NCBI GenBank assembly: GCA_030374765.1
Contig: JARGXX010000071.1
Location: 1,922,001 to 1,986,000, forward strand
DNA from: Agarophyton chilense
Taxonomy: Eukaryota; Rhodophyta; Florideophyceae; Gracilariales; Gracilariaceae
Direction of reading: 5' to 3'
DNA: 64,000 nt
Shown here piece after piece: positions 1,550 to 58,170 of this stretch (the first letter of the stretch is position 1; every line of letters begins with the position of its first letter). The position numbers and the translations under genes are program-made. The notes below the pieces were generated by a model. It was not told the DNA's origin. It saw only the letters and a program-made list of their open reading frames with translations, and searched no databases.

Positions 1550-1554
1550 CACTC

Positions 1555-2468
1555 TGTGGAGCAAAACCCGGCGACGGGAAGTGCTCTCAAGGTGTTCGAA
1601 GCCTTGCTCCCTGTGGGAAGCAGACTCAGAGACAGAGCCCTCCGTTCCACCCGTAGTGTGGGGTGTAACTCCCACGGGGGATTCCGGCAGTACCGACGGA
1701 GGTGAGGGGTAGAAACCGTTGGATCGGGAATGAATATGGGTATCCCAAAGAATGAGGGAAAATGCGGCGAAGAGGAAAAACGAGGCGAGGGTCGGGCACT
1801 AACAGGCACCGGACCCGAGAACCAGAAAAGGGGCAAAACAACAAAAGAAACCCAATACAGGGGCGAAAACCTGTCCTCGAAAGGAAACACAAAAAGCACG
1901 CAACAAGTAAGCAGAACCCCCACGGGGTATCGTGCACGCAGGTCGTCTGAGCGGTCCCAAGGGGGTGGTTGCACGGAACCCAAACGTGGGCACTCTCCAA
2001 GTGGACTCGTGTCCCTACGCAGGCGTTGCTAACCAGAGCCCGTTCCGGGTTGTAAGGCCGAAACGATGGCGACGAAGAACCTCTAAAGGTATCGAAGACC
2101 AACCTTGGTTTCCAATTACTTTGAGCTTCGGACTGTCAGATCTCATCTCCCTAAGTAGGGCCCACTAACTAAACTCTACAGTAGTGCACACCTGCTCAGG
2201 GCCATACACGTGGAGATCCAACTGTCAGGGCCCAAAAGTCCAACGTTCTACAAATATCCAAAATTCGGTGCCAAAATTAAGCCACGTGTATCACGGGGCC
2301 AATCCAACCATGGGCCATCCGAATTTTACCTTGTAGGCGAATTCTAACCAGAAAACAGTGCCACCTCAGCACACCTTAGAGGGGATCATAATCATAACCC
2401 TCGGAGGGTTCAATCCTCATTCTATGAGTTGCATCTTCAAGTATCCCCTAACTGGGCGTTGCTCTACA
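1555..2468 (-). repeat. E1 3' LTR
   Basis: 914 bp, TG to CA, matching 12376-13289 throughout with substitutions and few indels. The minus-strand purine tract AAGGAGGGGGAGA abuts its inner edge. If the antisense ORF at 2550 is transcribed, its promoter would have to lie in this LTR or in the 81 bp after it. A solo relative of this LTR sits at 52562-53484. Confidence 0.92.
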
Positions 2469-2487
2469 TCTCCCCCTCCTTAAGACG
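2469..2487 (-). other. E1 polypurine tract
   Basis: On the minus strand the bases directly before the 3' LTR read AAGGAGGGGGAGA, the standard position and composition for the plus-strand primer of reverse transcription. Confidence 0.8.
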
Positions 2488-2549: not shown

Positions 2550-4406
2550 ATGGGGTCCTTCACCACTTCTGGGGATCGCCACAAAACCGGCACATCGGTA
2601 CAACTTTCTCCTATTCCTCCGACTTCCGGCGATAAGCAACTTCTCGCAACAGCAGTCTCAACCAACCCTCTCAAGGGAATGAACCCATACGTCCTCAACC
2701 CACTCTCGGGGCCATCGGCCTCCACGCCGGCGGACAACGAAGCTCCCCAGCAGGGTGGATATTTCTCCGGTTTGGATGCAGCTCGGTCAGGTACCGAACC
2801 TTCCGCCTCGGCGGGCAACCGACATCCTCAGGAGGATTTGGAAATTAACGCGGTGGCGTGGAACTCCGCTCATGCGATGCCCTTGGTAGCAAACTCCAGA
2901 GGTTGGATCTCAAACGAATCCTTTCGAAGGTGGAGTCCCCTTAGCGATCCGGTGATATATTCCCGCGCTCCGTGGTTCCATCCGACAGCGGTTCGCGACG
3001 ATGAGCTCATCGACTCCTACGTGGAGGACGGCTTATTGCCGGGTGGCCTATCTGTTGAGGTTGTACGTTCTCCCGATTGGAGGGCACGGGTAGCCATAGA
3101 GCCTCAGTATCTATACCGCAGTCGCGGGGAGTCCCTGGACAAGGCGCGCGCAGCGATGGCGGCTCTGGCCTACCAGCGACTGGAGAGGTCACGCTTTGAC
3201 CATCTGGTTCCCCCGGAGTACGGGTTCGATGTCGCCTATTACCGCACGTACGGTGAGGTCTCCTACGGGGATAACCTGGCAGCCTTTCCCGAAGCCGAGT
3301 TCCGCGGACCGGGTTTTCCTCTCCGAGAAGATATGCTTCAATGGAGTCGTACCATCCTTCGGGCTGAATTCCGGTACCTTCAACGGCAGTTTACCCAGTA
3401 TGGGTTCGATCGACGCGTGCGCTTCGAGAGCCGCTCGCGCTCCCGTTTCGGGTTCCTTGTCCCGTATCCTCACGTGGAACTGGAGCGTGTCCGTAACACG
3501 GCGAAGGTTGGGCGATTCGTGCCCCTTCCAGCTTGGTGGAGTAAGGTCGAGGTCCTCCGAGGGTGCTTTGCTGAACTGCCCCCATGTATCTACTATATCG
3601 GGTCTCGTTTGATGCACGACCCGAACTCGGGATACTGGGCCCTCGTTGCAGCCGAGTGGGCAGCCTGCGTAGCGGCGCACCTCCTCTGGGATGCTCATGA
3701 CCATTTCCGTATCTGGTATATTCCTCCGATGCTACGGACCATCATGCGTCAGATCGACCTTGTCCCAGCGTTGGGTTCGGCCAGCAACGTGCAGGACCTG
3801 TATCCAATCTTGGACGTGATCGACAACACCCAATGGGATCGAGTTCCAGTGGAAAATCAGCCCGCAGGGGAAGGATCCGCGCGAGACAAGTCTCCTGGCC
3901 GGTACGATCCGGGCTCCGGTAACTGGGTCTATTACAATCCCTTCGAAGGGGTTCGCATCAGCGCGGCGCAAGCACGGGCGCTGATGGACTCGCCTCGACC
4001 GATGCCGGTGGGACACCCGACGGGGTTCATTTATACCGACGATTACGAGTACGAGCCTCCAGTAGACCTGGACGATCCAGCGTTGGATAACGACATGCCA
4101 GCTCCTAGTGGAGTACTCTCTGTGGAGCCATCTGCACCCTTCCAACCAGTGGGAACGACCTCAGCTGCGGCGGCGAATGCATCCGGTGGCGGTCCATCTG
4201 CTCCCCCCGGGTGGGGTGTGAACACCCTTGCGCAGGCGCCGGTTGCCACTCCGCAAGCGGATAGTGTGCGACAAGGCCTCGTGAACGCGGGCATTCCGAT
4301 TCCCCCGGGTATGACGGATGTGAGCCAGATGTTGGCTTTCGCCTCGGCGTACCATCAGGGTCAGAATCCCAACGGTGGGGCGGGTCCCTCCTCGGGCTTC
4401 CCGTAG
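2550..4406 (+). CDS. Intact antisense ORF of chromovirus E1, novel family
   Basis: 618 codons open on the strand opposite to gag-pol, from the first ATG at 2550 to TAG at 4406; the frame is open upstream to 2511 without an ATG. I recognise no domain. The N-terminal 90 residues are Ser/Thr/Pro rich. The middle is rich in Arg, Tyr and Trp, with W-W and Y-I-G-S motifs. A moderately hydrophobic stretch lies at about residues 361-381, followed by an IPP motif. The C-terminal 140 residues are Pro/Ala/Gly rich. A collinear homologue occurs in E2 at the same place and orientation (54384-56543). The shared core includes an ESRxR motif, the Trp pair, the hydrophobic segment, IPP and a D-L-x3-L-x6-WD pattern. 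Unlike gag and pol of the same element it has no stop or frameshift. A TATATATA run at 2531-2538 is too close to the ATG to be its TATA box. Function unknown. Confidence 0.75.
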   Translation: MGSFTTSGDRHKTGTSVQLSPIPPTSGDKQLLATAVSTNPLKGMNPYVLNPLSGPSASTPADNEAPQQGGYFSGLDAARSGTEPSASAGNRHPQEDLEINAVAWNSAHAMPLVANSRGWISNESFRRWSPLSDPVIYSRAPWFHPTAVRDDELIDSYVEDGLLPGGLSVEVVRSPDWRARVAIEPQYLYRSRGESLDKARAAMAALAYQRLERSRFDHLVPPEYGFDVAYYRTYGEVSYGDNLAAFPEAEFRGPGFPLREDMLQWSRTILRAEFRYLQRQFTQYGFDRRVRFESRSRSRFGFLVPYPHVELERVRNTAKVGRFVPLPAWWSKVEVLRGCFAELPPCIYYIGSRLMHDPNSGYWALVAAEWAACVAAHLLWDAHDHFRIWYIPPMLRTIMRQIDLVPALGSASNVQDLYPILDVIDNTQWDRVPVENQPAGEGSARDKSPGRYDPGSGNWVYYNPFEGVRISAAQARALMDSPRPMPVGHPTGFIYTDDYEYEPPVDLDDPALDNDMPAPSGVLSVEPSAPFQPVGTTSAAAANASGGGPSAPPGWGVNTLAQAPVATPQADSVRQGLVNAGIPIPPGMTDVSQMLAFASAYHQGQNPNGGAGPSSGFP

Positions 4407-4768
4407 TTCCGCCTTCGGGCAATTGTGGAGTCCATAGCTTGGCGACAATAGTAAACTTCTGATATTTGCATAACTTCTTTTCTTCTTCCTTCCTAGGATC
4501 TTAACTTCTACTTCATCTTCTTAATTCCTTCTTAGGATCCAATCTTCTTCTTAATCTTCTTCTCCACTTCGTGGGTCTTCTTTTCCTTTTTTCATCATAA
4601 ACTGTCCCGATAACCGGTGTTGTGTTCCCCGGTTAACGGCGCTAGGCCGAGGGCCAGTAGACATTCCCTCTCAATACGTGTTCTTCGGGATACTCTCCTC
4701 AATTCCTCTTCAGAGGTCTAACATCTTCCTCACTTCGAGGTCGCATCCACACCAGTTCCCGTGGTGGC
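4407..4768. other. Convergent gap between antisense ORF and chromodomain
   Basis: Holds a pyrimidine-rich tract on the plus strand (4460-4595, repeated CTTCTT and AGGATC units), purine-rich in the sense direction of the element. No ORF of note. It is where transcripts of the two opposing genes would have to end. Confidence 0.6.
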
Positions 4769-5059
4769 TTACCCGACTTGGGCACGATCCAGACTTGGAG
4801 GCAAGGTTACCCGAGCGCGTCGGTGATAGGATAAAACCTTAGACCTCGGAAGGTGCTCAATGGGTTCCACTGTATCCTCATCAGGCGAGAATCCGTACCA
4901 TCGGACTTGGTAGCGGACTTCTCCCTCGGGGGTGTAGATGTGACGCACGATGCGATCGATAACGAATTCCTGCGGGTACACTTTTCCCTTTTCGGACTTC
5001 TCTTCAATCTTGGAACGCTCTAGTTCCCTTGAGGGTGTCAACGTAGGGTCTAGACACAC
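4769..5059 (-). CDS. E1 chromodomain (C-terminal end of integrase)
   Basis: Reads FVIDRIVRHIYTPEGEVRYQ, then VRWYGF and EPIEHLP, the classic chromodomain pattern with aromatic positions (VRWYGF) and the E-x2-EHL segment. This domain at the end of integrase defines chromoviruses and usually steers integration to marked chromatin. It is in the same frame as the integrase piece ending at 5585 but separated from it by 525 bp with several stops. Confidence 0.85.
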   Translation of the reverse strand: MCLDPTLTPSRELERSKIEEKSEKGKVYPQEFVIDRIVRHIYTPEGEVRYQVRWYGFSPDEDTVEPIEHLPRSKVLSYHRRARVTLPPSLDRAQVG

Positions 5060-5584
5060 CCCTGTGGGTTCTTTTCCGTGTTGGGAGCGGGTCTCAGCAC
5101 TTCGTCCAAACGGCGCCGAGTGGCTTGTGGGCTACGTTGTAACTTCCGTCTACGGAGTCAAAACGGTCCAGCTTTAAGAAGAACTTAAAGCTGAGATCTT
5201 CCCGATAACAACGGTGTTCTTAGATTCCGTGACGGTTGAGAAACCGCGACGCGGTAGCGTCTCCAATATCAGGGGGGTGAGACTTCAACGTCAACCCGAG
5301 CTACGGGGACGAAGGTTGCTCCCGTGCAACGCGCCGTGCGACGGAGGCGGTTTGCGCGACGGTTGGTCGTCAGAGCCTTTTGATTGGCTCGGTGCCATTC
5401 GACGTGTGCCACACAAATGCACGGGCGCTCCGTGTGGGGTGACCGTTACTTGTGCGGGAAAATCTGCATATGCGGATGTGAGGTGGCGCTTTCGACACGC
5501 GCTAGCATTCTCCTGAGCTGTCCCCGACGGGTCTCACTCATTTCTTTCCCATTCCTGAGGGTTCCAGTGTCTCCATAGGAGTTC
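5060..5584. other. E1 linker between integrase GPY and chromodomain
   Basis: Several stops in the pol frame, no recognisable domain, no visible target duplication. In E2 the corresponding linker is short and nearly open, so this is either extra material or a decayed stretch. Confidence 0.5.
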
Positions 5585-6655
5585 CTATTCCCATTCCATA
5601 ACGGAGAGCCAAATTTGGTCAACCTCGTCGTCGAGATCTTCCCCGTGCGGGTCCGCTGACACAGCTAGTTCCCGAGAAAGCGGGGTTTCAGTGTGCGATA
5701 CCTCAGTGTCTCGTCCGCGGCGGCGGGAGATCGTCGGCTCTGTAGGCGTTCCGGGTGCAGAGTTCTCCACACGACTCTCCCTAGGCGGGGTTTCGTCATC
5801 TTTTCTGACGTCGTGCTCGGCTGGGTCGGCGGTGATGTCGCTACCCATACGCTGGGGTTGAGACTTCTCTGTCGCCGGCTCGGTCGGGCTCGCCGTCTCA
5901 CTGCGAGAACTAGATTCCCCGTTAGGGCGACTGGCTGACGCCGAAATATCGTCCTGCGAAGGAACTAAGTCCTCCTCCCCCTCCTTAGGCGGAGAGCCAG
6001 GAGGCTGGATTACCTCCGGTGGGGGAGTAAATCTGTAAGAGTTCGTTGACTGGGCCCTTGAGGGAGCGGGCCCAGGTTCGGGAGTATCCGAAGTTTCCGG
6101 TAGGTCGGTTAAACCACGTTCCGGGTGCGGAAGTATAACGGGGCGGGTGTTCGAATCTCCGCCTGACGGGTTAACTTCCGTTGAATCATCCCCTGTGGAG
6201 GGCGTTGGTGCCGACACCACTTCCACATTTGGGTTGGGCGCTCGTGTGATGCGGTCCCTGGAGATCCGTTCGTGGCGGTTAGCGATATCCAATACCACCG
6301 TGTCCGGGTCTACAGAAACCACCCGATAGGGTCCGTCCACAATTGGCGAAAGCTTGTGCCAACGTTCCTTTTCAGGATTGTAGTATTCCTTTCGAAGGAA
6401 GACGAAGTCGTCGGGCTCCACCTGAGGTAGAGGTTTGCGAACCCGATTGTCAAAGTCCTTCTTGTAGGCGCGTTGAGCTTTTTCCATTGCTTTCCGGGCT
6501 ATCGGCACCATCTTCGTAAGCCACTCCTTCCAGGCTTCTCGGTAGAATCCCGGTGACGGGTACGTCGACAGCGTCGGTTGAGCCTCGATGGCGACCGGCG
6601 GCGGTGTCCTCGACAGTACCAGTTCGAATGGGGATAACGATGTAACCTGATGTAC
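5585..6655 (-). pseudogene. E1 integrase C-terminal part with GPY module
   Basis: Continues the integrase after a one-base shift near 6655 (in an ACACCC context). It contains the SPFELVLSR segment after the catalytic core, then the GPY/F module (VDGPYRVVSVDPDTVVLDI, followed by DRITRAPN). A long Ser/Pro/Glu-rich low-complexity tail leads towards the chromodomain. TAG ends the frame at 5585. Adjacent to, and originally fused with, the reverse transcriptase ORF upstream. Confidence 0.85.
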
Positions 6656-8930
6656 TGGGTGTTGTATGCATACGTGATAGCGTCTGTGTACAAGTCCCAA
6701 TTTTTGGGGTGATCCGCAACATAAGATCTCAAAGCGTTGAGTATCGTGCGGTTAAACCTCTCCACCTGGCCATTCCCCTGAGGGTGATACGTAGTAACAA
6801 ATAAATTCCTTACATCAAGGATTCGACATACATCCTGAAAGAACTTTGATGCGAATTGCCCTCCGTTGTCGGATAACAACTGCACCGGCGGTCCATATAC
6901 GAACACCCAATGGGTCACGAACGCTTGCGCGACGGTAGCGGCGGTGATCCGCTTCAGCGGCACAGTTCTCGTTAGCTTAGAGAATCTGTCAGAAAGGACA
7001 AGCAGATACCGATGACCTCGGGGCGTCCTGATAAACTCCCCTAGGATGTCTATGGCCACGAATTCGAGTGGAGCCCGTGCCGGGAACAGCATAAACTTCT
7101 TAGAGTGCTTCCGAAGTTTGACGTAATTCTTGGCGCAATTGGCGCAGGCCCGTCTGACGGCGTAACAATCGAATGCCATTGCCGGCCAGTAAAAGTCCCT
7201 TCTCAACGTGAGGTACAGTTTTCTTCCCCCGGGGTGGGCGCCAACCTTCACATAGTGAGTGAGGTGTAATACCCTCTGTTGTAGGGTGTGCGGCACCACT
7301 ATCCTCGGGCGAGGTCCAACGGTCCTGATTAGGTAACCCTGATCGTCGTCCTCGAAAGGTAACTGAAATCCTCCGTTGAGGCGAGCCCGAATCCGTGTAC
7401 AGAATGGGTCGAGCTGTTGCTCGCGTATCATCTCCTCTGGAGAGATAGGTATAAAAGAGCCGGTCGGCGAATCCAGACTCTCGTTGACGAGTATATCGTC
7501 ACAAACATCATCCGTCAGCGGTTGAGCTCCTCCCTCGAGGTCCGATACCATAAAAAATGGGATGTCATCGCCCTCGTAGGGTTCCGTTTCCGCTGTGGTT
7601 CCCAAGCGGGATAGTGCATCAGCCTGAGTGTTCAGCTTCCCTTTCTTGTACAGGATCTCAAAGTCGAATTCCAACAGTCGGAGACGCCAGCGCATAAGGC
7701 GGCCCGAGGGTTCGGAGATCTCCAGGAGCCAACGCAAGCATGCGTGGTCCGTATGGACTTTGAAACGAGTACCCATCAGATAGGGGCGAAGTGTAGCTAA
7801 GGCCCACACAACGGCTAAACATTCTTTCTCGGAGACCGAGTAGTTCCTTTCATGGACATTCAGGGAACGTAACCAGTACCCAATAGGGTGACGTTCACCA
7901 TCCTCAGAGGATTGGAACAGTGCACACCCTAATTGGTTTGCACTAGCATCGGTGTCCACTTCGTAAGGGAGCCCAGGATTGGGTAGAGCCAAGATTGGCG
8001 GTGATGTTACGGCATTCACCAGTGCCGTGAAGGCAGACGCTTCCGCGTCGCCAAAAGGTTCCAGTTCAACTGGTTGTCCCTTCGTCAGGAGCCTGTTGAG
8101 GGGGGTGGCAATATCCGCAAAGTTCGGGACAAATCGGCGATACACGTTACACAGACCTAAGAAGGATTGCAACTCCGTTTGAGTTTTTGGGTGTTTTGCT
8201 TCCTTCAAGGATTTCACTCGTACTTCATCGATTGAAAGCTGTCCGGGACGGATGATATGACCCAGATACTTAACCGAATCGGTGAAAAACTCGCACTTCT
8301 TGAGTTTCAAGGTGATTCCCGCGTCGCGGAGTATCTTCATTGCGTCCCTGACGTGTTCGAGGTGGTTATCCAGGTTGTTGGAGAAGACAATAATGTCGTC
8401 TAAATACACTAGACACGTCCTCCACTTGAAGGGAGCCAACAGAATGTCTATCGCCCGTTGAAACGTTGCGGGGGCATTTGTCAACCCAAAAGGCATCCTC
8501 CGGAATCGGAAAAGTCCTTGATGACACACGAAAGCCGTTTTGTCTCGATCTTCCTCCCTAATAGGGACTTGCCAGTAGCCCGAATTGGCGTCGAGGGTAG
8601 AGAAAACAGTAGCGCTCCCAAGGGAGTCGATGTATTCGTCCATCCGAGGGATCGGGTACACATCCTTAATGGTTACCTCGTTCAGGCGTCTGTAATCGAT
8701 GCAGAAACGCCACGATCCATCCGGTTTCGGAACTAACACCACTGGTGAGGCCCAAGCGGACTGGGCAGGTTCAATTACGCCCGCTTTAAGCATCTTCTCC
8801 ACCTGAGATTTCTCCTCTTCCCGAGCTTTCGGTCCAGCCCTGTAAGGGTGTTGGGCAATAGGCCGAGTGTTCGATAACAAGTCGATGCGGTGTTCTGTAA
8901 TCCCAATAGTTCCAAGGGAACCATCCCACA
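6656..8930 (-). pseudogene. E1 reverse transcriptase, RNase H and integrase core
   Basis: Order: RT with YLDDIIVF catalytic motif, the FGLTNAPATFQ and YRRLNEVT segments, then RNase H with TDASANQLG and TDHACLRWLL. Integrase follows with an HHCC zinc finger ending CANCAKN and a D,D-35-E core: AIDILGEF, LLSDNGGQF, YHPQGNGQVERFN. All catalytic acids are present. It is cut from protease by a lost base in a C-run near 8930 and from the integrase tail by a second shift near 6655. Both indels are in short C-rich runs, so sequencing or assembly error cannot be excluded. Confidence 0.93.
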
Positions 8931-10135
8931 GGGGGTAAATTCACAAAGCATGTGCCTCAGCTTCTCCCGATGAGATGCGGGTACATGGTTGAGATCCCAT
9001 TTCTCCAATTCCTGAACAGGATCCGTCTGGTCTGCTCCAGTGATAGGGGCCGTAACCTTCTGAGGTTTAAAGTGTTCAGCGTGTGGAGCTGCAGTCGTAT
9101 GCTCACCGTCTTCCGCGATTTCGGCAGTGTCCTCCCCCTCCTTAGGGTCCGCCACACCAAGGACCTCTGCGATAGAGATCTTTGTAGGTACGACCGCATG
9201 CGGGTGTGGAAGAACAGAACCCAGGATCTGGTGTTTGACCAAATGCTGCGTTGTCTTTCCAAAGTTGGCTACCAAAACCTTGAAAGGTTTATCCGGTTCC
9301 ACGGAGACAACCCCATTCGCAAGGGCGAGTTGACGCCGCGTATACAGAGATGGGTTCGGTTGTACCACATGCACACCAATTTGTTTGGTAACAACTGTGA
9401 CCCAAACCTGGGTTTCTGGCGGGATAGCCACTGACTTCGCAACCTTTACCCGTGTAGACACCGGGTCCTTCTTCACAGATTCCTGCGCGACAGGGAGAGG
9501 AACGCGTGTTGGCGCTGCTCCCTGTAAGGGTTTACGAACGATTGGGATCGTAGACCCGTCTTCGAGTTCCACAGTTCTATTCCGAGGACGGATGGCTTCC
9601 ACGAAGCGGTCGCAAAAGTCACAACCCAGTGTGACTGGTGCTGCAAGTGACTTGCATACAATAAACTCTAGTTGAACGAGATAGGAGCCTAACCTCACCA
9701 TGAGGGAAATTGTACCCAGTGTCCGTAGCAGGTTGTTGTTCGCATAGGCGATATCCAAACGTGGACCGGTACGAACTTGAACCCGGAGCAGCGGGGGTAA
9801 CAATTCAACATGAATTAAGTTAGGAGCGGCTCCTGTATCCAGGACAGATATTTGACGAACCATAAACTGGCTGGACAGGACGAAGTCGGCGAATACTTTA
9901 TAATTCCGCTTGGCCATTACCATAACTCGATCCGGAATACGGAGATTACGGGACCGTATCCACGGGCGACGGAGGACACTAAAGTATCCCGAGTTAACGT
10001 CGGTGTCATCCGTTCTCCTTGAAAGGATAGTCACAGCTGGGGAGCGAAGCTGGAGCGCCTCGGGCGTCTTCGACTCCGGCTTAGAAGACGCCCCTCCCGC
10101 AGGGGAGACTCCCAAGTTTAGTTTTTCGAAGCGGA
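8931..10135 (-). CDS. E1 aspartic protease region of pol
   Basis: Contains the retroviral-type protease signature SVLDTGAAPNLIH and a following VTLGCDF segment (the G-D/C-D flap-side motif). The frame lies at -1 relative to gag and has no clear ATG: it is open across the gag stop, suggesting frameshift access. The sequence GAAAAAC sits just before the gag TAA at 10118-10120 in gag phase G-AAA-AAC. The domain runs into RT in the original polyprotein, interrupted by the one-base shift near 8930. Confidence 0.85.
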
Positions 10136-12148
10136 CCCCACCGAATTCGGTGCAGCTGCCTCGAAGGGGACCGGTTGTTCCCCGTTCGCGGGTACAAGTT
10201 CTGTATCCCTGTCAGCAAGGTGAGCTCGGAGTATCCTTTGTTCCTCATAGGACCTACTCGGGACTCGAGCTTTCTCCTCAGGGGTCAGAGCCTCGTACTG
10301 AGCGATAATTCGTGAACCCTCCCGCAGGGGAAATGTGCAGTCTGGTGCTTTGTGACCACGGAGGTAACACAAATAGCAAATCAGCTCTGCCGGGTTCGGT
10401 TGTGGACGTGAATCCACGCGACGTGGTGCTGTATCCCTCCATCCGGGGCGAGAGAACCGAGCAGCGGTATTCGCAAAAGGTAGCGATGTGGCTGGCACCC
10501 TCCGTCCGTGGGTATAGAGCACAGGGTCTTCATCCGTAGTCCGAGCGGATGTCGACGGCAACTCAGACGTACCCATAGATTCGGGGTTACTTCCCATGAA
10601 GTGAAGGTTATCATTGACCCCCACAGGGGCAGGGCCTCCTGCGAGTGACAAAGACGAGTTACCTCCATCGGCGAGGAGTGCACGTGTCGGCCGACTCTTT
10701 CGGTTCTGCCGGGCACGGAGAGTATTCCCCTCAGCCTGGGCGTACTGAACCAGTTCCAAGTAGGTCAGCTTGCGCTTCCCTTCCCGATGTCGGGCAACCA
10801 ATGCCCTTATCGAGGGGTCCAAACCATCCACAAACATGGAGCATCTCTCGTAGGCGGGGAATACATTCCCGCATCGGTGAAACGCTTTATTCAAGCGAGT
10901 TGAATACACCTTTTCGGTTTCCATCGGCTTCTGCCGCGTATCCCTTAATGCAAGGATTGCTTCCTGAATCCCATTTCCAGTAGCGTATGACCTCAAGAGG
11001 TACTGCACCGCTTCGGGCCAGCACGTGACTCCCCCTTCCGAGGCTCGGGATGATCCACGGACGGAGTTGAACTGGTCTTCAGCCATCCCCTTTAAGAAAT
11101 AGGGTAATGCCAGATACGCTTGCGCTTCACTCATACCGAGGATGTCAGCCTCCTGGACGAACCTCGCAAGGAAATCGAGCACCAGAATTGGGTCTGTTCC
11201 TGTGAACTCCCTCTTCTGTAGGGTGATGCTCAGCCTTTTGATGTAGTCCTTGACCTTACCCGTTCCGCGGGATGTTCGATCTCCCGAAGGGTTATCCAAC
11301 CGGTAATAGCGGTACGATAGCAGCTTCCGATAGAGAGGATTCGTCGGCTTCAGCTCCCTTAATCCAAGGTGTTTCCTACCCTTCTTGCGGGTACGGATTG
11401 CCCCTTGAGTGGTGTAAGTAGCCTTCGACCGAGTCGCCCGGGATGACCGGCGTTCATCTTCACTATCCGAAGATTCGGAGGACGAACTCGATGGCGAGCG
11501 ATTGGGATCGGAATCCGATAAATCCTCTTGGAGGTGAACCCTCTTCTTGGACTTGGGGCGGTCCCGTTTAGCGGAGCGGTGTTATTCGTCTTCCGAAACG
11601 TCGGGTTTATCCTTCGAGGCTTCTGCGTCTCCGTCCATACGGATAATGGCCTCGAGGGTGTCCAGCCGAGCTCGGAAGCGTTCCGCTTGCACGCGATGTT
11701 CCTCCACGTGGCTCCGGTACTCCTGGATAAAGACCCCAGGGGTACCAAAGCTTTCCAAAAGGGAGTTCACATCCCTCCTCAGGGTACGAAGGTCATCGGC
11801 GACTCCCCGCACCGGGGCGTCCTCCACCTTGAGGCGGAGGGTAGTAACCTCCTGAAGGAGCTCGACGTGAGCAGCGTTGGCGATATCGATTCGAGTCTCC
11901 AGGCGCTGTAATTCAGGGTCGGCCCGACTTCGGGGTGCTGCTGAGGGGGTCTCCAGCACTGGAGCTGGGCCCACAGCCACGACCTCTCGAGGACCTGAAA
12001 CCACTGAGGGTGCTCTCCGAGTGTCCGGATCGATACCGGAATCGTTCCGACCTTCGGGAATTGAGCTCCTCGACCTAGGCGGGGCCGGGGGCACTGAATC
12101 CGCTTGACGGTTCGATCCAGTCCTGGAACCACGGGTAGGCGGCGACAT
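10118..12148 (-). pseudogene. E1 gag, one in-frame stop
   Basis: One frame of 676 codons from ATG at 12148, broken only by TAA at 11582-11584. The N-terminal third is Pro/Ser rich, followed by a helical coiled-coil-like stretch. Then comes a basic and Ser/Asp/Glu-rich region (about 11440-11560). The capsid-like region has FTGTDPILVLDFL and a zinc knuckle CYLCYLRGHKAPDC (C-x2-C-x4-H-x4-C). The architecture matches E2 gag at 46823-49033, including the FTGTDPI motif, supporting one continuous original protein. Confidence 0.85.
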
Positions 12149-12375: not shown

Positions 12376-13289
12376 TGTGGAGCAAAACCCGGCGACGGGA
12401 AGTGCTCTCAAGGTGTTCGAAGCCTTGCTCCCTGGGGGAGGCAGACTCAGAGACAGAGCCCTCCGTTCCACCCGTAGTGTGGCGTGTAACTCCCACGGGG
12501 GATTCCGGCAGTACCGACGGAGGTGAGGGGTAGAAACCGTTGGATCGGGAATGGGTATGGGTATCCCAAAGAATGGGGGAAAATCCGGCGAAGAGGAAAA
12601 ACGGGGCGAGGGTCGGGCACTAACAGGCACTGGACCCGAGAACCAGAAAAGGGGCAAAACAACAAAAGAAACCCAATACAGGGGCGAAAACCTGTCCTCG
12701 AAAGGAAACACAAAAAGCACGCAACAAGTAAGCAGAACCCCACGGGGTATCGTGCACGCAGGTCGTCTGAGCGGTCCCAAGGGGGTGGTTGCACGGAACC
12801 CAAACGCGGGCACTCTCCAAGTGGAGTCGTGTCCCTACGCAGGCGTTGCTAACCAGAGCCCGTTCCGGGTTGTAAGGCCGAAACGATGGCGACGAAGAAC
12901 CTCTAAAGGTATCGAAGACCAACCTTGGGGTCCATTTACTTTGAGCTTCGGACTGTCAGATCTCATCTCCCTAACTAGGACCCACTAACTAAACTCTACA
13001 GTAGTGCCCACCTGCTCAGGGCCATACACGTGGAGATCCAACTGTCAGGGCCCAAAAGTCCAACGTTCTACAAATATCCGAAATTCGGTGCCAAAATTAA
13101 GCCACGTGTATCACGGGGCCAATCCAACCATGGGCCATCCGAATCTTCCCTTCATAGGCGAACTCTAACCAGAAAACAGTGCCACCTCAGCACACCTTAG
13201 AGGGGATCATAGTCATAGCCCTCGGAGGGTTCAACCCTCATTCTATGAGTTGCATCTTCAAGTATCCCCTAACTGGGCTTTGCTCTACA
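12376..13289 (-). repeat. E1 5' LTR
   Basis: 914 bp, partner of 1555-2468. Followed by CACTC at 13290-13294, the right copy of the target-site duplication. Confidence 0.92.
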
Positions 13290-13294
13290 CACTC

Positions 13295-14426: not shown

Positions 14427-17400
14427 CTTTTGCTAGAGATAGCTAGAGTAGAATGAACAAAACGGAGAGGCAGCTGTTCTTATCCATCCAAGCGAGCTGT
14501 TGATAGACGAAAATGCTGACTTCTCTATCTTATTCCCCGGCTCTTCATGCTTCTTTCGGCGGTGTCTAGAGAGGGGATATTCGGTAACACCATCAAGCTT
14601 ATCATTTTCATCAGTTTCTATGGTAAAGTCACTGTTCTGGGTTGTATTAATACCAAAGAAGCGAAGTTTTCCAGGTCCATGGTTAACATCACCAAACTTA
14701 AACTTTTTGTTGAACTTGTCTAGAAAAACCATAGCCCGGTCACCTACACCTGCTGCCTTCAAGTCGTCGACAATCTTCGCGACGATTAGCACAAGCTTTC
14801 CATTCTCCTTTTGGAAAAATAGCTGGGGAACATGCGTGGATTGCGTGAGTCCAATATCACACATTACTTGGTCAGACTGATTTTGCCACTTGGCGTTAGC
14901 ATTAACCAAGCCATACGCCGCAGTTAAGAGAAGCCAAAGGTGAGAAGCCTTCATCTCACTCTCTCTCGGTGGTCTGACGTACACGTCACGCTGAGCTGTT
15001 CCAGTCTGTAGAAATGCTGCCTTGACGTCAGCCTTGTACAGGGTCCACCCAAAGAGAGAAGATATGGACTCGAGGATCCGTAGTCCTGTAGGAGGGCATG
15101 TGCTGCAGTCTTTGCTTAGAGAGTCCTTTAAATCGTCTTCATTACCATGAGGTGCTATGCGAGCTTTAAGCTTCAATGAACCATCATCATTCTTTTTCAA
15201 CTTGTACAGTGTATGACTGTTTATAATATTAGACGCAGATGGAACCTTACTCTTAGGAAGAGGTCGCACAGTCTTCAGGAATGTCTCCTCCTCCGTTCTG
15301 TAAGCATTGACAAGAGGAAACTGATCAAATCCTTGTGCCTGGTGAATGAGAAATGGTTTGTTACCAAAGTGGTCTAGCATCGATGATAGCACAGAGCTTT
15401 CAATACTAGTAACCTCCAAACCCTTTGAAACTTTACCAGCGTTTGCAGGAAGTGCACTTGCAAATTTCCAATGTTCTTTTGTCATATCTAGACATTCTGT
15501 GTCACCATCATCATAGTGGATCTCTCGGTGTCCGTCGTCTGCTGTAGAGTGCACGATACCATTGTAGAACTGACCTTCCAGTGGCCAAAAAACAGAGATT
15601 CTGCCACCAAGTGCAGGTTCTGACTTGGAGGTCTCGGTTGAAAAATCATCGTCAGCAGGTTCTTCAACCTCATAAGAGGATTCTACAGCGCCATTTACAT
15701 CATGATCCATGACACCATAATATTTTTCGTGAAGGAGCTCATCTAATTCGTCAATACCATCTTGCACATATTGCGCAAGGCTCTTATTTGGTATGGCAGG
15801 GCGAATGTCTTCGACAGCGACAGACAATTGGCGTCCTGCCTTTCCAGGAACAGTGACAGAGCGGGCATCGTAATTGATAGATAGGATTGGTTTAGCAACT
15901 GACCATTTGCCCCTCTTTTCGTGCTCTTTCTTCTGGAAGATCTCAACAAGGTCACCAACAGAAATAGGTAACTCTTGAACTGCTTTTGATCGCAGAATAA
16001 GAGCTAACTTACGGCGAGCTTGCATCCTTTCACGGGCTTCTAAAACATCATCAGGTACAGTACAATCCTGGGGTCTAGAAGCAACGGGGTTGGTGAAACC
16101 TTTTGTTAATTCGAAAGCAGACATAGTGTCATTACCATACAAATCATTTGATAGAGAAACTGCCTTGTGTGCAGCAAGCTTAGAGTCAAATTCTGAGCCA
16201 GCAGCTTCCTTCAGTCGCAGAAATATACTGCGAATTATGTTGTGTTTAGACTCGATTGGGTTCTTTGAGTGTCGTCCAGGGGGAGCTGAACGAATCTGAA
16301 TACCCATCTTGTCAGCGTAAGCTTTGAACTCGCCCATTTGGAAGGCCTTATTCGCTTGAATTGAATCAGGATACCAGAACTGACTGACCCAACTGGCCTC
16401 AAATCCAAGTACTGCATCATAAAGCTTGGTAGAAGAAACAATGTATGCCGTTGAATATCTCGAAATGAGATCCATGCAGTGCATGAGGAGAATTTCATCC
16501 AGATTGAAGTGATCCACGCACAAGACTTCGTTGAAACTCTTTGATAAACAGCTGATCGAGACCTTCCTATTAGGCTGCGGTACAGCAGTGCAACGACAAG
16601 CTGTGCACTCTTCCATGGTTCTTGCAACATAGGAGGCTATTGTTTCATTCCAAAGGTTGTTCCTTTCCAAAAGAAGCTTATAATCCGTAAAGCTTGCGTG
16701 TCCACATACATGCTTGTGAACTTTATCGATTACTTTCTTAAGTTCCTTCCATCGCATCTTGTCTAAAGTTACAGCACTTTGACATGACAAAGTTGATGTA
16801 GCCTTTTCCTTTTCGATGAAACTATCCAGTGGTACATAGCTTAAGAACTCGTGGTCAACCATGGAGATATGGTCGACATTTCCATCTATGACAAATGCTA
16901 GAGCATTTCTTTCAAGGTGCTCTATGTTGGCCTTCCTTGTAACATTTCTGCCAATTACCCACTGCGATGAGCCTTCAAGGACTAGATGTGTTATGTTGAC
17001 AGAACGTCCACTGTCAGAATTTGCTGTGAGCACACTGGATCCTAAAATGCGACGAGCTGGACTGGCATGTTTTCCTGTACCATACTGCCAGTGTGTGTGA
17101 CCATTGAGGGCCTTAGGTATTTTATCCAGCTTCCTATTGGTCTGAAGTCCAGCATTTCCAATGAGAAGGTTCATTTCGACCTGTCTAATTGCCGAGTAAG
17201 TTGCTCCGTCATCAACTAACGGTCCAGGTTGAGCAAATGCAGGCAATGATGCTGAAGATCCGGAAACTGTAGCCATGTTAAAAGAAACACTTTTCTTCTT
17301 ACCCTTATCGAAACCGGTAGAAGCATAGGCCGAGGTAGATGAGGATCCGTCACGAGCATTTCGTGAGTTTCCGTTCTGAGGTGCGTCAAACGACTTCACG

Positions 17401-36441: not shown

Positions 36442-36519
36442 CAGTTATTATGAGACTTTTGGCGCACACGCCTCTGAATGCTATGTACTCTATGATTTAC
36501 TTGTTCGCGTGGAGGACCA

Positions 36520-40699: not shown

Positions 40700-40812
40700 A
40701 CGATATGGTAATACTGTGAACAAAGCGCCACTGTATACTGCGAGATTCGACCCAGAAGCACACAGCGCACTATTGCATCGTCCGTCCGTACTACCGGGGC
40801 ACATTTGCATCA

Positions 40813-45716: not shown

Positions 45717-46040
45717 TTGTACCGCCAAAGCGTGAGTGGCATTATAAACGTAATGTATCATAACAATGATCGCCTGTTTTTCGCACGGCAGTTTACTCCC
45801 ATTCCAAAAGCTTGGTTTTCGGAAGTACTACTCCCTAAAACCAAGCTTTTGGAAAAAGCTCTCTGCCAACGTTTGTCCTTAAGAAAGACAACCGCAGGCA
45901 GAGAGCTCTTCCACTTGATATTTGACCGTTCACTGTCCAAAAACGGTACGGAAAGTAGCACAACAGGATTTTTTGGCACTACATCAATGGAAAGAATGAA
46001 GGTTATGCAAGCGTTTCCAGAAGTTGTAGAAATCACAATC
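45717..46040 (+). pseudogene. Possible MULE/ZSWIM-type transposase fragment
   Basis: An open frame that stops at the left edge of E2. Its end reads GFFGTTSMERMKVMQAFPEV followed by VEIT, resembling the block before the first catalytic Asp of MULE-type and ZSWIM transposases (FPEVxxxDxTY). The continuation is not found right of E2 (58171 onward). Much of the fragment overlaps strong hairpins (45804-45907), so the reading is tentative. Confidence 0.3.
45804..45907. repeat. Two consecutive perfect hairpins
   Basis: CCAAAAGCTTGGTTTT (45804-45819) pairs with AAAACCAAGCTTTTGG (45837-45852), 16 bp, 17-base loop. AGCTCTCTGCC (45857-45867) pairs with GGCAGAGAGCT (45897-45907), 11 bp, with partial pairing (TTGTC and GACAA) inside the 29-base loop. 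Confidence 0.85.
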
Positions 46041-46675
46041 TGTCGTATAGTGGCAGAAGGTTTGACCTTTGAGGTTGTCAATATACTACACTGACCTTGT
46101 ACGTGGTGGAGGCGAGGGTTCATCGGCCACGCAGCTCCGGGCGAGCTACCATCCAGGTGTTGTCAGCCACGTGTAATGTTGACATGTACTTTCTGGTTGA
46201 GTGATTGTTAGTACTTGTCATTGTAATTATACTTATTTTAGTACAGTGGTGGAGTGGCTACCTGGCACTGTAGCTAGTGCTGGCCAGGTCTCTGACACTA
46301 GGTCAGAGACCGTATCTTTCTGGCACCTCCCGGGTGATTTGGAGAGTGCAGTCCACTTCACATAGGGAACTGCACCTCCCCCATCCTAATCTGATAAAGA
46401 CAGGCATCACTTGGGTCACGACTATACCTTTTGGTTCATCGTTTCTCAACTACCACACAGGCTTTCCCGGCGCGTCGACGCCTACCATCGTTCACCTACA
46501 CGGTATAGGCTAGTTTCCCCGCCGTTTGCCCCTGTGGGTTTTCACGGTGCCCTGTTACCATCGAGGTTTACTACGTCCACCTTCTAAGGTTGAGCGTCAA
46601 CACGCTCCCTACGGTTGAGCGTCACTACGCTCCCGAGACAAGACAGGAGCATACCCCAGAGGTGATTGTACGACA
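46041..46675 (+). repeat. E2 5' LTR
   Basis: 635 bp, TG to CA with 7-bp inverted ends, partner of 57537-58170. Confidence 0.9.
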
Positions 46676-53489: not shown

Positions 53490-54223
53490 ATGCAGAAAGC
53501 CGCCTCACTGCAGCCCAGAAGAGGTACAAGGCCGACTACGACCGTATGGTAACCAAAGTGGTCTCTGTATCTTCGGGACAATATGTCTACATAGACAACC
53601 CACCTTCAGGTAAAAGACCACGACCGGGTGATGAATCAGACGATGAAGCTACTGGAAGTGATATCAATTCGAAGCTTCTACCCAAATCAGTGGGACCTTA
53701 TAAGGTATTGAACGCATCAGACCACACCGTTACGGTTGAACAAGATGGAATACCGAATAAGATATCAATTGACCGTATTACGGTAGCACCTGGAACGGTT
53801 CAACATCGCATTGAGGCAGGCACCTCAGCCCGAGAGCCCAGAGCTGTAGCTCTGCGCACCAGACCCTCGGAGGACCCCACCCCAATTGAGGTGAACGATG
53901 ACCTTCAACGTGATGATCAGGATTACAACCCTCTAACAGGGACGGAAATTGAATCTCAAACGGTAAAAGCGGGAGCTCCCAACTCGGAACATATGAACCC
54001 TAAAGGTAGCGCTTCCCCGAAAGATTAGAACCAAACCTCAGATGAATTTCCCGTTGACCGTCTGGTAGGCCACATGCGAACCTACAATGGTCTGAAGTAC
54101 ACTGTAAGGTGGTACGGCTGGGGCCCAGAAGGGGAGACCCTCGAACCCCCAGCCGCAATATCCCCACACTTCCGTATCAGGTATTGGCGCCGTCACAAGG
54201 AGCCGATGCCTGCAGACCGCTAA
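53490..54223 (+). pseudogene. E2 integrase GPY module and chromodomain
   Basis: Integrase tail RYKADYDRM, then LLPKSVGPYKVLNASDHTV (GPY module) and DRITVAPGTV, an acidic linker, TAG 54026-54028, then FPVDRLVGHMRTYNGLKYTV and RWYGWGPEGETLEP, a chromodomain with the aromatic RWYGW block. Ends at TAA 54221-54223. Only 160 bp separate it from the stop of the antisense ORF. Confidence 0.87.
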
Positions 54224-54383: not shown

Positions 54384-56543
54384 TTAAGAAGGACCTGTCG
54401 GTTTAGGAGCGATTGAATAATGAGGACCCGTGTTATTGACTACCCACGGATGAAAACCTGCAGAAATGCCAGGAGCCATCGATCTAAGAGGTAGGGAAGG
54501 AGCGGTAGCCCCGCCACTGTGGAGAAGAGTCGAAACCAAAAGAGGATGAACGAAAGGAACCGCCGGAGCAGGTTGCAAAACCGCAGGGTTCAAGTTGGCA
54601 CCTAGAAGGGGATCTGTCAAAGGATCAGATGGCGCAGCAGCAGAGACACTTGCCAGATTGGCAACCTGACGGGTGGCCAGTTGGTACATGTCCAAGTGGA
54701 ACTGGTTCCGGAGCTCCCCAAGTTGGTTCAGCGCCTTCATGTACTGCACATGGCGCGGCAGCAAACCTTCAAGGAGCGTTAAGGCAGCAACCATGGAGGT
54801 AGGCCCAGCCCTCTGAAAGTTGGTGACTCAAGACTGGCGAATTCGAGACAGCAAACCGACCACGGCCGGAGAATCCATCATAGGTTGGGGCGGAGGACGA
54901 GCAATACCGGCCAACAGAGGTCGAACCGGACCAGCAACCCGCGAGGAGCTCGGTCGAGTAGGAGTCACACCCGTAGGCATAGGCGACTTACGACCTTGAG
55001 GTAACGGCTCGGACGGGAAGGGACCAGCATAACCACCAATTGGTGTCTCCACAGTACCGTGATAAGGTTCGGGGCTCGCGGGAGCTCCATAAACAGGAGG
55101 CTCCCCGGGATAATATTCGGCGTGGCGAGACACAATCTCCCAAGTTGCGGGATCGAAAGCCTCTCAACCTTGATGGGAATCCCAATGGTAATTTTTGCTC
55201 TGCTCGAGGTACGAGTCCAAATCCTTCACGGTATAATCGGTCCCCTCCACGATGTTCTCGTAACCAAAACGGGAAATATCCTGGGCAACCCTCGGAGGTA
55301 TGAAGAAGATGCGACCTACAGGTTGAACACCATCTCGGTGTATGTCAGAGTCGGGATTGCGACAATCCCAATCGATACCGTAACGGGCGGCCTCCAGAGC
55401 CAGGATGGCAACCAATACGATCCACTCCGAGAAAGCAATCGACCAAATGAGGTAATACCGCTCTAGTTTCCGGGAAATCTGACTCCCAAAGTACGACAAG
55501 ACCGGCGGAGTGGGCACGCTCAGTGATAACGGAACCTCATAGGACTCCCACCACTCTGATCGAAGCACGTACCAATCTCGTCTGTCCTTCGTAGGTTGTG
55601 AGAGGTACTCGACGTTATGAAACATATGCATAACGCGAGTGTAAGAGTTGCGAGTGCGAACGCGACTCTCCGTCGCTGCATCCTCGTCCCACCTACTACG
55701 GTATGAACAATTGATAGTGGTGAAAGGCCGGTTCAAGGAAACCAAGTCAGTTGAAACCGGAAGGTAAGTTTCCGGAATAGACGGGTACTTGCACACTTGC
55801 ACCACCAATCGACGGTAATAATCCATCTACGGTTCAATGCGCACATACGGCAAGTCGCTCAGATATATCGGCGGGATGAAATACCTCAAAGGTGTATGAC
55901 GCTGCCTACTCTGGTAACAATCCATTCGACATTGACGAGGTTGAGACTCTTGGTCCCTTTTCTCCAAAAGCAATGGGACGGAGAGAAGGCGTTCGCAGTC
56001 CCAACGGGACAAACCCAAGTAGGTATCCAATTGTGGTCTGGTGAGAGCTGCCGGCAATGACCAATTCCCCACCGCCACAGGCCAATCGTGCTTCAACGGG
56101 TCACTGTGAGTCACCTGGTCGAAGGCAACACCAAAAGGTCCATACTGATTCGTCTTCCGGTTCGCCGTACTAAACGCGGGATTATGAGCCCAATTGGTTT
56201 GTGTTTTCGAAGGAAGTCCATCGCTGTGTTGGGATGGGTCAGCCAAAGTCCCAGGGGAGAACTGTGTCGCAGGGACAGGCAAGCTGCGAAAACCAATGTT
56301 GGTAGGCGTTCGAGAAGCCGAGCGAGTCACCCTCTTGGTAATACCCCCGCGTCTACGGCCACAAGATGGGCCGCTACCTGACATGGTTGGGAAGGCCATA
56401 GCTTGACCCGACGAACGAGGTGATGACTCGACCTCCACCGCCGCTGTGAACACCAGCGGGTATTCATCCTTCTGAAGTAGAACCTCTTCGGTCCGTTCTG
56501 AGGAGACGGCCAACGGATCCAACCTTTCCGGCAGTACCGACAC
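54384..56543 (-). pseudogene. Antisense ORF of chromovirus E2, homologue of the E1 antisense ORF
   Basis: One frame of 720 codons from ATG at 56543 to the stop at 54384, interrupted only by TAG 55827-55829, TGA 55164-55166 and TGA 54828-54830. Residue similarity to the E1 ORF is collinear: SDPLKHDW, then ESRVRTRN, SEWWESYEV, SYFGSQIS, a strong hydrophobic segment (IWSIAFSEWIVLVAILALE, about residues 362-385), FFIPPRV, DLDSYLEQS and HWD, then FDPATWEI and a Pro-rich tail. Each E1 counterpart comes in the same order. The hydrophobic segment could span a membrane once. No family recognised. All three stops could derive from CAG or CGA by C-to-T change (inference). Confidence 0.7.
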
Positions 56544-57524
56544 TGACCTTTCGGATACAACAGTGGCCGGCGTGCGGTCGCGAATGTCCAGACCTTTGAG
56601 GTATCGCGGAACGGGACTAATCAGACCTTAAAGGCATAACTGCAGGGGTATCAATCCCCTCGGAATATCCGACTTCTTCGACCTCAATGGTAACCGGCAT
56701 CTCACGTCTCTCGAGCGCTGGTGCTGCTTGTGGGGACGAACCACCCCTTCGAGATATCGGTGACGAATCCACGATGCGGCGCGAGGTGCACCGACGTGGC
56801 ACCGAATGGGTTCGAATGCGTGCGCGGAGGCGGCGCGATCCTGTCATTGCCTTGAGGGTAAACCGGAATGCAAAACCGGAAAAAGGTCGCGTAATTACCG
56901 ACAGGGCCGCTCAACACCAATAAGGTCTCACAACCGGAAGCTTCCACCACGGACCCAGGCCAACACCTCAATGATTGTATGGACGCAGGCTCAGGCCCCA
57001 CCGGCGCCACGAGTCCATCCTTAAAAAGTAGACAAAATCTGGAAGGTCGAGGAGCCAGGAAACCTTCAGCGAAAAGCCGGACAGCACGGTTACGGTCGCG
57101 ACGCCGCCAACTAAGAGCAGCACTACCTGAAGGGTTGTCGAGCCGTGGGAACGACCAGGCGGGACGGCGCTACGCATGGACCTAGAAGGGAACTGAAGTT
57201 TGAGTAACCGGGAAAGGGTGAGACACCAACTTGGTTAGACAGGGAGGCTATGCGGAAGCAGAATCGCAAGCAAGCAGGGCCATTACCGAAACGGTGTCCG
57301 TGAGCGCGCTAGTTACACTGCATCGCCCTCATGACAGTCCCTACCTGAATGGTTGTCGCTCAATTCCTGCACCGACGTCGTCGCGCGCCCTCCCCAACCT
57401 ATGCTGGCGCCGAGTTCTGATCCTCAAGGGATCGCGCGCAGACACCACTCCGATTCCCGCGCCGCTGTCGCTCCCTACATCTCTCTGGGTTTATGGAAGG
57501 AGACACGGGGCGTGCCTAACGGGT
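56544..57524. other. E2 region between antisense ORF start and purine tract
   Basis: About 980 bp against 81 bp in E1. Only short open frames; the antisense frame has no obvious upstream extension. It may hold the leader or promoter of the antisense gene. Confidence 0.45.
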
Positions 57525-57534: not shown

Positions 57535-57536
57535 TC

Positions 57537-58170
57537 TGTCGTATAGTGGCAGAAGGTCTGACCTTTGCGGTTGTCAATATACTACACTTACCTTGTAGGT
57601 GATGGATGCGAGGGTTCATCGGCCACGCAGCTCCGGGCGGGCTACCATCTAGGTGTTGTCAGCCACGTGTACTGTTGACATGTACTTTCTCGTTGAGTGA
57701 TTGTTAGTACTTGTCATTGTAATTATACTTATTTTAGTACAGTGGTGGAGTGGCCACCTGGCACTGTAGCTAGTGCTGGCCAGGTCTCGGACGCTAGGTC
57801 AGAGACCGTACCTTTCTGGCACCTCCCGGTTGATCTGGAGAGTGCAGTCCACTTCACATAGGGAACTGCACCTCCCCCATCCTAATCTGATAAAGACAGG
57901 CATCACTTGGGTCACGACTATACCTTTTGGTTCATCGTTTCTCAACTACCACACAGGCTTTCCCGCGCGTCGACGCCTACCATCGTTCACCTACACGTTA
58001 TAGGCTAGTTGCCCCGCCGTTTGCCCCTTCGGATTTTCACGCTGTCCTGATACCATCGAGGTTTATTACGTCCACCTTCTAAGGTTGAGCGTCAACACGC
58101 TTCCTACAATTGAGCGTCACCACGCTCCCGAGACAAGACAGTAGCATACCCTTGAGGTGATTGTACGACA
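57537..58170 (+). repeat. E2 3' LTR
   Basis: 634 bp, partner of 46041-46675. Confidence 0.9.

What the first reader, a model, noticed from the sequence alone, without database searches (positions are those of the whole stretch)
2550..4406. Conserved antisense gene in two chromodomain gypsy elements
E1 (2550-4406, plus) and E2 (54384-56543, minus) each carry a 620-720 codon ORF at the same place, between chromodomain and 3' LTR, on the strand opposite to gag-pol. The products align in order: SDP region, ESRxR, W-W, Y-x-GS, hydrophobic segment, IPP, D-L-x3-L and WD, Pro-rich tail. The elements have different LTRs (914 and 635 bp), so the ORF is older than their split. Plant Tat-lineage gypsy elements (such as Grande) are known to have antisense extra ORFs, but they lack chromodomains. 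I recognise no family for this protein, so it may be a new accessory retrotransposon gene.
Basis: partly seen in the sequence, partly recalled or inferred. Interest (0 to 1): 0.88.

Follow-up and report, generated by a model that had tools for sequence, protein, structure and literature searches.

The report
Antisense gene in seaweed retrotransposons
Jumping elements in the genome of a red seaweed carry, on the strand opposite to their usual genes, a large extra protein gene of unknown family that natural selection has kept across several element lineages.

Summary
The window comes from a red alga, almost certainly Agarophyton (Gracilaria) chilense. E1 is a chromodomain gypsy element whose pol-3'LTR interval carries an antisense 618-codon gene. 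In the E2 copy of this window the homologous frame is broken (three stops, one frame slip), but sister copies are open (820 codons in L015). Homologs occur in at least five more element families of this genome, antisense and downstream of the chromodomain in every pair examined. The antisense frame is the only stop-free one. Between families dN/dS is 0.18-0.29 in the seven of ten non-E2 pairs that gave a value (mostly near saturation); within E1 and E2, shared substitutions give 0.39 and 0.61. It is therefore an inherited accessory protein gene, not an echo of a sense protein. By position it resembles the antisense aORFs of plant Retand/Grande and fungal Boty elements, but the protein is different and sits in chromodomain elements of a red alga. 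If the first ATG is the start, only 35-81 nt separate it from the 3' LTR in three families, which points to an LTR promoter. A nuclear regulatory role is inference; no expression evidence.

The parts
2550..4406 (+). E1 antisense accessory gene (aORF), 618 codons from ATG 2550; a second in-frame ATG at 2679 is also possible
   Evidence: 71 scored copies in the genome at 94-100% identity over residues 1-617/618; both ATGs kept in 26 of 26 copies analysed
1555..2468 (-). E1 3' LTR; presumed site of the antisense promoter
   Evidence: LTR pair 96.9% identical; TG...CA ends and TSD
2469..2483 (-). E1 polypurine tract beside the 3' LTR
   Evidence: read from sequence, kept in most of 20 copies
1550..1554 (.). 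E1 target-site duplication CACTC, left
13290..13294 (.). E1 target-site duplication CACTC, right
4820..4966 (-). E1 chromodomain
   Evidence: Pfam PF00385, E 2.6e-8, 34.1 bits, over cut-off
6499..8880 (-). E1 reverse transcriptase - RNase H - integrase
   Evidence: Pfam RVT_1 1.6e-39, RT_RNaseH, H2C2, rve
8775..10115 (-). E1 protease region (no Pfam hit; homologous to the E2 protease region)
   Evidence: tblastn 33%, 1.3e-32
10118..11299 (-). E1 gag
   Evidence: Pfam Retrotrans_gag E 3.8e-4, below its curated cut-off; 29% to the E2 gag region
12376..13289 (-). E1 5' LTR
54384..56847 (-). E2 antisense gene, degenerate copy: three in-frame stops and a frame slip in the N-terminal part
   Evidence: open relatives
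54053..54172 (+). E2 chromodomain (weak)
   Evidence: Pfam Chromo 2.7e-4, 21.2 bits, below the 25.1 cut-off; tblastn to the E1 chromodomain ORF 1.1e-10
46039..46675 (+). E2 5' LTR (approximate ends)
57535..58170 (+). E2 3' LTR (approximate ends)

Best explanation
E1 and E2 belong to a set of chromodomain Ty3/gypsy retrotransposons of a red alga that are ambisense: gag-pol on one strand and, on the other strand between the chromodomain and the 3' LTR, an inherited accessory protein gene. SHOWN by sequence: the gene exists, is antisense, is shared by at least seven element families of one genome, and is under protein-level purifying selection. INFERRED: its mRNA starts in or at the edge of the 3' LTR (bidirectional LTR), because the first ATG lies 35-81 nt from the LTR edge in three families. 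INFERRED, less sure: the product (variable, often basic N-terminus; conserved core of about 300 residues; low-complexity tail) acts in trans in the nucleus, tuning transcription of the element or countering host silencing, as proposed for other antisense aORFs and reported for retroviral HBZ.
For: Homologs lie antisense below the chromodomain in L049, L051, L052, L054 and L055, besides E1 and E2. Of 150 listed chromodomain hits, 34 have an aORF of E1, F049 or F052 type from the listings within 3.5 kb; 34 of 34 are on the opposite strand and downstream (truncated lists, E2, F054 and F055 not entered, so a floor). Selection. Pol and aORF identities correlate over 14 family pairs (r 0.76, pairs not independent). 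E1 and E2 are 50% identical in RT-INT, 29% in gag, 23% in aORF, as for a gag-like co-inherited gene. LTR-to-ATG spacing. The N-terminus upstream of the second Met resembles P0011 (0 of 1000 shuffles reach the score), which supports the first ATG. N-terminal fifth basic in three of four proteins (pI 12.0, 10.7, 9.1), tail acidic in three of four (pI 4.1-4.5).
Against: No transcript or peptide evidence was available. No recognised DNA-binding domain. The charge pattern is not general: E1's N-terminus has pI 5.5, E2's tail 9.9. E2's hydrophobic stretch (KD 2.1) could be a membrane helix. If translation starts at the second candidate Met (2679 in E1, 312 in L054 and L055), the leader outside the LTR is about 170-270 nt and an internal promoter is possible; E2 has about 690 nt. 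A TATA-like run just before the E1 ATG is not strictly conserved. The chromodomain, meant as a positive control for the within-family test, showed no constraint (20 shared substitutions, ratio 1.34). E1 copies were picked by aORF similarity, which favours intact frames. The wobble-sharing partner frame also reaches Fisher p 0.0024 (E1) and 0.0095 (E2), though full of stops. Small trees do not agree in every grouping.
Confidence: 0.6

Rival explanations
1. Sense/antisense echo: the antisense frame is open only because a sense-strand protein or base composition keeps it so.
For: The partner frame on the other strand that shares third positions also shows third-position bias and a lowered ratio for shared substitutions (0.42 in E1, 0.77 in E2).
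Against: That partner frame has 21 (E1) and 35 (E2) stops in the per-site majority and 15-44 in each between-family pair, while the aORF frame has none (the pieces compared were chosen open). Resampled DNA never reached the ORF length.
Confidence: 0.02
2. RNA-level control: the antisense transcript (dsRNA/siRNA or interference) is what matters; the protein is secondary.
For: The ORF lies inside the region that a sense genomic RNA would cover; antisense RNA control is discussed for other elements (PMC7264820, parts 1-2 read).
Against: Selection acts on amino acids between families (0.18-0.29 in seven pairs), and 42 of 71 listed E1 copies have no stop (my count). Both roles could coexist.
Confidence: 0.1
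3. Structural or membrane protein (env-like or particle accessory), not a nuclear regulator.
For: One hydrophobic stretch of 19 residues in all four proteins tested, KD 1.2-2.1, strongest in E2.
Against: In E1, L054 and L055 the stretch is modest (KD 1.2-1.5) and holds charged residues; the env-like aORFs described are sense-oriented (PMC7264820); no match to gag by profile comparison (probability 0.1%).
Confidence: 0.2
4. A captured host gene or nested unrelated transposon that hitch-hikes.
For: No known family; origin unknown.
Against: Same place and orientation in seven families, with 18-59% protein identity among the six compared and similar spacing to chromodomain and PPT where read; recent hitch-hiking would not give that. 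Old capture remains possible as ultimate origin.
Confidence: 0.08

Closest known systems
Antisense aORF (aORF-3R) of plant gypsy elements: maize Grande gene23, rice RIRE2, Silene Retand (PMC7264820 parts 1-2 of 3 read; PMC11963269 passages)
   Same: Gypsy element; gene between pol and 3' LTR; antisense to gag-pol; present and conserved in most copies of several families
   Different: Retand is a non-chromovirus lineage of land plants whose aORFs mostly carry TRP28 (PF04195), not detected here. Here: chromodomain elements of a red alga and a protein of 590-820 residues without a known family
brtn of Boty-like (BcGypsy1) elements of Botrytis (PMC7264820; reference title seen in PMC8365987 passages; Zhao 2011 itself not read)
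   Same: Antisense additional gene in a fungal gypsy element
   Different: Protein not available to compare; fungi
HBZ/APH antisense proteins of HTLV retroviruses (PMC10186651 passages)
   Same: Antisense gene, transcribed from a promoter in the 3' LTR; regulatory protein
   Different: HBZ is a bZIP factor; no bZIP or other significant Pfam match here; transcription not shown here
Chromoviruses (Ty3/gypsy with integrase chromodomain)
   Same: Gag, protease region, RT-RNaseH-INT, chromodomain, LTRs, PPT, TSD
   Different: The extra antisense gene; none of the listings of the 10 paper searches (named in Tried and rejected) showed one described in red algae

Membership tests
Antisense aORF-3R class (positional class) | ORF between pol and 3' LTR, antisense to gag-pol | tested here: met
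   E1; other families (their 3' LTRs were not paired)
Antisense aORF-3R class (positional class) | Present in most copies and several families with protein-level conservation | tested here: met
   several families and hundreds of listed matches; selection: 37, 76. 'Most copies' was not measured, since lists were truncated and picked by aORF similarity
Antisense aORF-3R class (positional class) | Antisense transcript; nuclear product (reported for Grande) | not testable with these tools
   no RNA or localisation data
Retand TRP28 aORF | TRP28 / Transposase_28 domain (PF04195) | tested here: not met
   no hit in the 9 members of A2 at E up to 10 nor in 5 proteins; none in the genome, but the control also rang nowhere
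Chromovirus | gypsy-type RT-RH-INT order with a C-terminal chromodomain | tested here: met
   E1. E2, L054, L055 chromodomains are below the Pfam cut-off (21.2, 16.3, 20.4 bits against 25.1) but in the expected place. Frame breaks separate pol and chromodomain in E1
HBZ-like antisense regulator | bZIP domain | tested here: not met
   no Pfam match
HBZ-like antisense regulator | Transcription from the 3' LTR | tested here: inconclusive
   first ATG 35-81 nt from the LTR edge in three families (edges of L054 and L055 inferred), later ATGs possible, about 690 nt in E2; no RNA data
Env-like sense aORF | Same strand as gag-pol | tested here: not met
Boty brtn | Sequence homology to brtn | not tested
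   brtn sequence not held

The most novel reading that the evidence does not exclude
Red-algal chromoviruses are ambisense elements: an ancestral antisense gene for a new protein family, driven by a bidirectional LTR, has been kept since the common ancestor of the Gracilaria E1, E2, F049, F052, F054 and F055 lineages, and its product is the element's own regulator or anti-silencing factor. It would be an origin of antisense accessory genes independent of plant Tat, fungal Boty and deltaretroviruses.
Probability: 0.45. Interest if true: 0.78.

Novelty: new variant of a known kind. Interest (0 to 1): 0.62.

Why it matters
Antisense accessory genes of LTR elements are described from some plant and fungal elements and have no settled function (PMC7264820, PMC11963269). 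Here is a fast-changing but kept example in a red alga, in elements with a chromodomain, with several families and hundreds of matches in one small genome. That makes function testable by comparison and suggests an independent origin of the class. It also indicates that some 'unnamed protein products' of Agarophyton chilense are retrotransposon antisense genes, which matters for gene counts in a genome reported as 66.2% repeats (PMC10388701).

Tried and rejected
Chance or composition: rejected. Mirror of a sense protein: rejected. TRP28: no match (the genome search had no ringing control). Gag origin: no profile match (probability 0.1%). PDB by sequence and by profile: nothing. PHROGs and NCBIfam: nothing significant (best PHROG 0.19). 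Pfam TMEM220 at E 0.051 in P0008 only, and CBP_BcsN at 0.14 in an E2 piece: taken as chance. TATA box before the E1 ATG: not strictly conserved. The chromodomain as positive control failed to show constraint. N/S counts between the two candidate start codons of E1 are too few to decide. Trees (FastTree, 5-6 taxa, unrooted): the place of E2 differs between pol and aORF, with weak aORF support (0.65) and a very long branch; in a 224-residue RT tree F054 joins E1 (0.66) rather than F055; taken as unresolved. Structure: tool switched off, so no fold search.

Literature: ten searches answered. None of their listings showed a description of antisense genes in red-algal retrotransposons; the library misses most subscription journals. 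Seen: PMC7264820 parts 1 and 2 of 3; passages of PMC11963269, PMC10388701, PMC12502185, PMC8365987, PMC2774666, PMC10186651. The VANDAL anti-silencing analogy that informs my functional guess is recalled, from no call.

Full report
ORGANISM. The window is G000:C71:1922001-1986000 of a 79.8 Mb, 135-contig genome. A protein labelled Agarophyton chilense (P0003) maps piecewise at 97-99% to one locus (G000:C128:930039-931958), while the other listed matches are 69-93% (list truncated). The published Gracilaria chilensis assembly is 76 Mb in 138 contigs, 48.9% GC, 66.2% repeats (PMC10388701, passages). I take the genome to be this red alga; the rRNA search that could have helped did not complete.

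E1. LTRs at 96.9% identity, TSD CACTC, a purine tract beside the 3' LTR, gag, protease region, RT-RNaseH-integrase and a chromodomain on the minus strand, spread over several frames. The antisense ORF runs from ATG 2550 to 4406. Support for this start: 2-nt length changes just upstream in 4 of 20 aligned copies and none inside, and likeness of the first 43 residues to P0011 (0 of 1000 shuffles reach the score). A second in-frame ATG at 2679 matches the start of P0002; both ATGs are kept in 26 of 26 copies analysed, and two further copies, L005 and L007, seem to lack the first. The start is thus likely but not settled.

E2. The window copy is degenerate. Of 151 matches to one 220-residue piece, nine listed ones without a stop lie in frames of 614-876 codons; L015 has 820 codons from ATG. 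The product is homologous to E1's: phmmer 5.6e-9 in a two-sequence search, and the order P-x-WW-x3-EV / PP-x3-Y-x-GS / W-x5-EW-x3-VA / R-I-x2-IPP / V-x2-L / W is shared.

HOW WIDE. The E1 query found 71 scored matches among 1860 first-look candidates; by my count 42 of 71 have no stop. I then read 5 kb downstream of six other chromodomain hits (of 150 listed, 1935 candidates). L049, L051 and L052 carry an antisense homolog below that chromodomain (to E1: 42%, 4e-81; 28%, 1e-15; 36%, 5e-60); in these three copies the frame is broken into pieces. L050 is a CHD-type helicase gene and has none. L048 and L053 begin with a different repeated chromodomain gene whose own status is unclear; L053 also holds an E2-like element with its own chromodomain and a degenerate aORF. 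Searching with the L049 piece gave seven L049-family copies (two of them open at 624 codons) and two further families at about 53-59% and 57-65% identity (118 scored of 1646). One open member of each was fetched, L054 and L055: 645 and 591 codons from the first ATG, with the chromodomain on the opposite strand. The L052 piece gave 138 copies, 17 of them open at 607-611 codons (my count). So E1, E2 and families F049, F051, F052, F054 and F055 carry it. In the coordinate census 34 of 150 chromodomain hits had a listed E1, F049 or F052 aORF nearby, 34 of 34 opposite and downstream; lists are truncated, so 34 is a floor, and it does not measure how many chromoviruses lack the gene.

OUTSIDE THIS GENOME. 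Protein searches found 10 proteins at E up to 1 among 7,999 scored candidates: six labelled Agarophyton chilense and four without a name (P0002, P0005, P0008, P0011; 581, 244, 473, 274 aa; P0011 only at E 0.002). Their organisms are unknown to me; P0002 has no match above 52% among the 75 scored in this genome, the others were not checked.

SELECTION. Within families I compared singletons with substitutions shared by two or more copies, each against expectation from the same base changes. E1 (26 of 28 fetched copies, out of 71 listed; L005 and L007 dropped for a different match start): shared N43 S47 against 63/27 expected, ratio 0.39; singletons 0.78; Fisher p 0.0011. E2 (14 sequences, window copy included, of 151 matches): shared 0.61, singletons 0.91, p 2.3e-4. 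New stops among shared changes: E1 0 (3.5 expected), E2 2 (12.1 expected). The wobble-sharing partner frame follows (0.42, p 0.0024; 0.77, p 0.0095) but holds 21 and 35 stops. The non-coding gap 4410-4768 gave ratios of 0.73-1.79; the chromodomain, meant as a positive control, gave 1.34 on 20 shared changes, so it does not confirm the method there. Copies were chosen by similarity of the aORF protein, which favours intact frames; the absence of indels in the E1 ORF must be read with that in mind. Between families: of ten pairs without E2, seven give dN/dS 0.18-0.29 at dS 1.23-3.69 (only L055-L049 is well short of saturation) and three are saturated; of five pairs with E2, three are saturated and two give 0.04 (dS 25.8) and 0.41. 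In all 15 pairs the aORF frame has no stop (pieces chosen open) and the highest substitution score of six frames; identity is highest in 14 and tied in one (L052-E2). The partner frame has 15-44 stops.

AGE. E1 and E2 are 50% identical in RT-INT, 29% in gag, 33% in protease, 34% in chromodomain and 23% in aORF. Over 14 family pairs pol and aORF identity correlate (Pearson 0.76, Spearman 0.64, pairs not independent). F049 and F054 group in both pol and aORF trees; E2 is unstable in the aORF tree, and a short RT tree puts F054 with E1 (0.66) rather than with F055. This fits co-inheritance from a common ancestor on the whole; exchange between elements is not excluded.

MECHANISM. Between the LTR edge and the first ATG there are 81 nt in E1, 35 in L054 and 46 in L055 (their LTR edges inferred by likeness to E1). 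If that ATG is used there is hardly room for a promoter outside the LTR, so I infer LTR-driven antisense transcription; with the second candidate Met the leader is about 170-270 nt, and E2 has about 690 nt. The proteins share a core of about 300 residues between low-complexity arms. The N-terminal fifth is basic in L054, L055 and E2 and not in E1; the tail is acidic in E1, L054 and L055 and not in E2. A nuclear regulator or anti-silencing factor is my best guess (about 0.45 on its own); a structural or membrane role about 0.2; RNA-level control alone about 0.1. That the gene is real, antisense and selected I hold at about 0.95.

KNOWN KINDS. It belongs by position to the antisense aORF-3R class of Vicient and Casacuberta (PMC7264820). 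It fails the TRP28 test for Retand. Boty brtn could not be compared. I call it a new variant of a known kind: new protein family, new host group, chromodomain lineage, several families deep.

Noticed in passing
L048 1-800 and L053 (reverse) 1-761: A repeated chromodomain gene with frames up to 1227 aa, followed by a shared 206-aa ORF; the seven best chromodomain hits score 66.0-66.7 bits. Kind of element unknown.
   Followed up: partly
window 14433-18086 (-) and 28138-31245 (-): Two Copia elements with long open pol frames (1217 and 1035 aa; Pfam RVT_2).
   Followed up: no
window 29978-31021 (+): 347-aa open frame antisense to the Copia ORF 28138-31245; no Pfam match, possibly chance overlap.
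   Followed up: no
window 63317-63904: Two tandem 294-nt copies at 95% identity inside a 289-aa open frame (-).
   Followed up: no
window 35662-42573: Host genes between the elements: Rcd1-like, ArfGAP/UBA, EF-hand plus Na/Ca exchanger.
   Followed up: no
G000:C128:930039-931958: Agarophyton chilense 'unnamed protein product' P0003 corresponds to an E2-type antisense gene matched in three pieces, as if annotated with introns: a repeat gene apparently counted as a host gene.
   Followed up: partly
window 5131-5585: In E1 the chromodomain lies in a separate frame from pol; the stretch 5150-5449 has the lowest mean identity of the covered region (0.889), partly at the end of the fetched stretches.
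   Followed up: no
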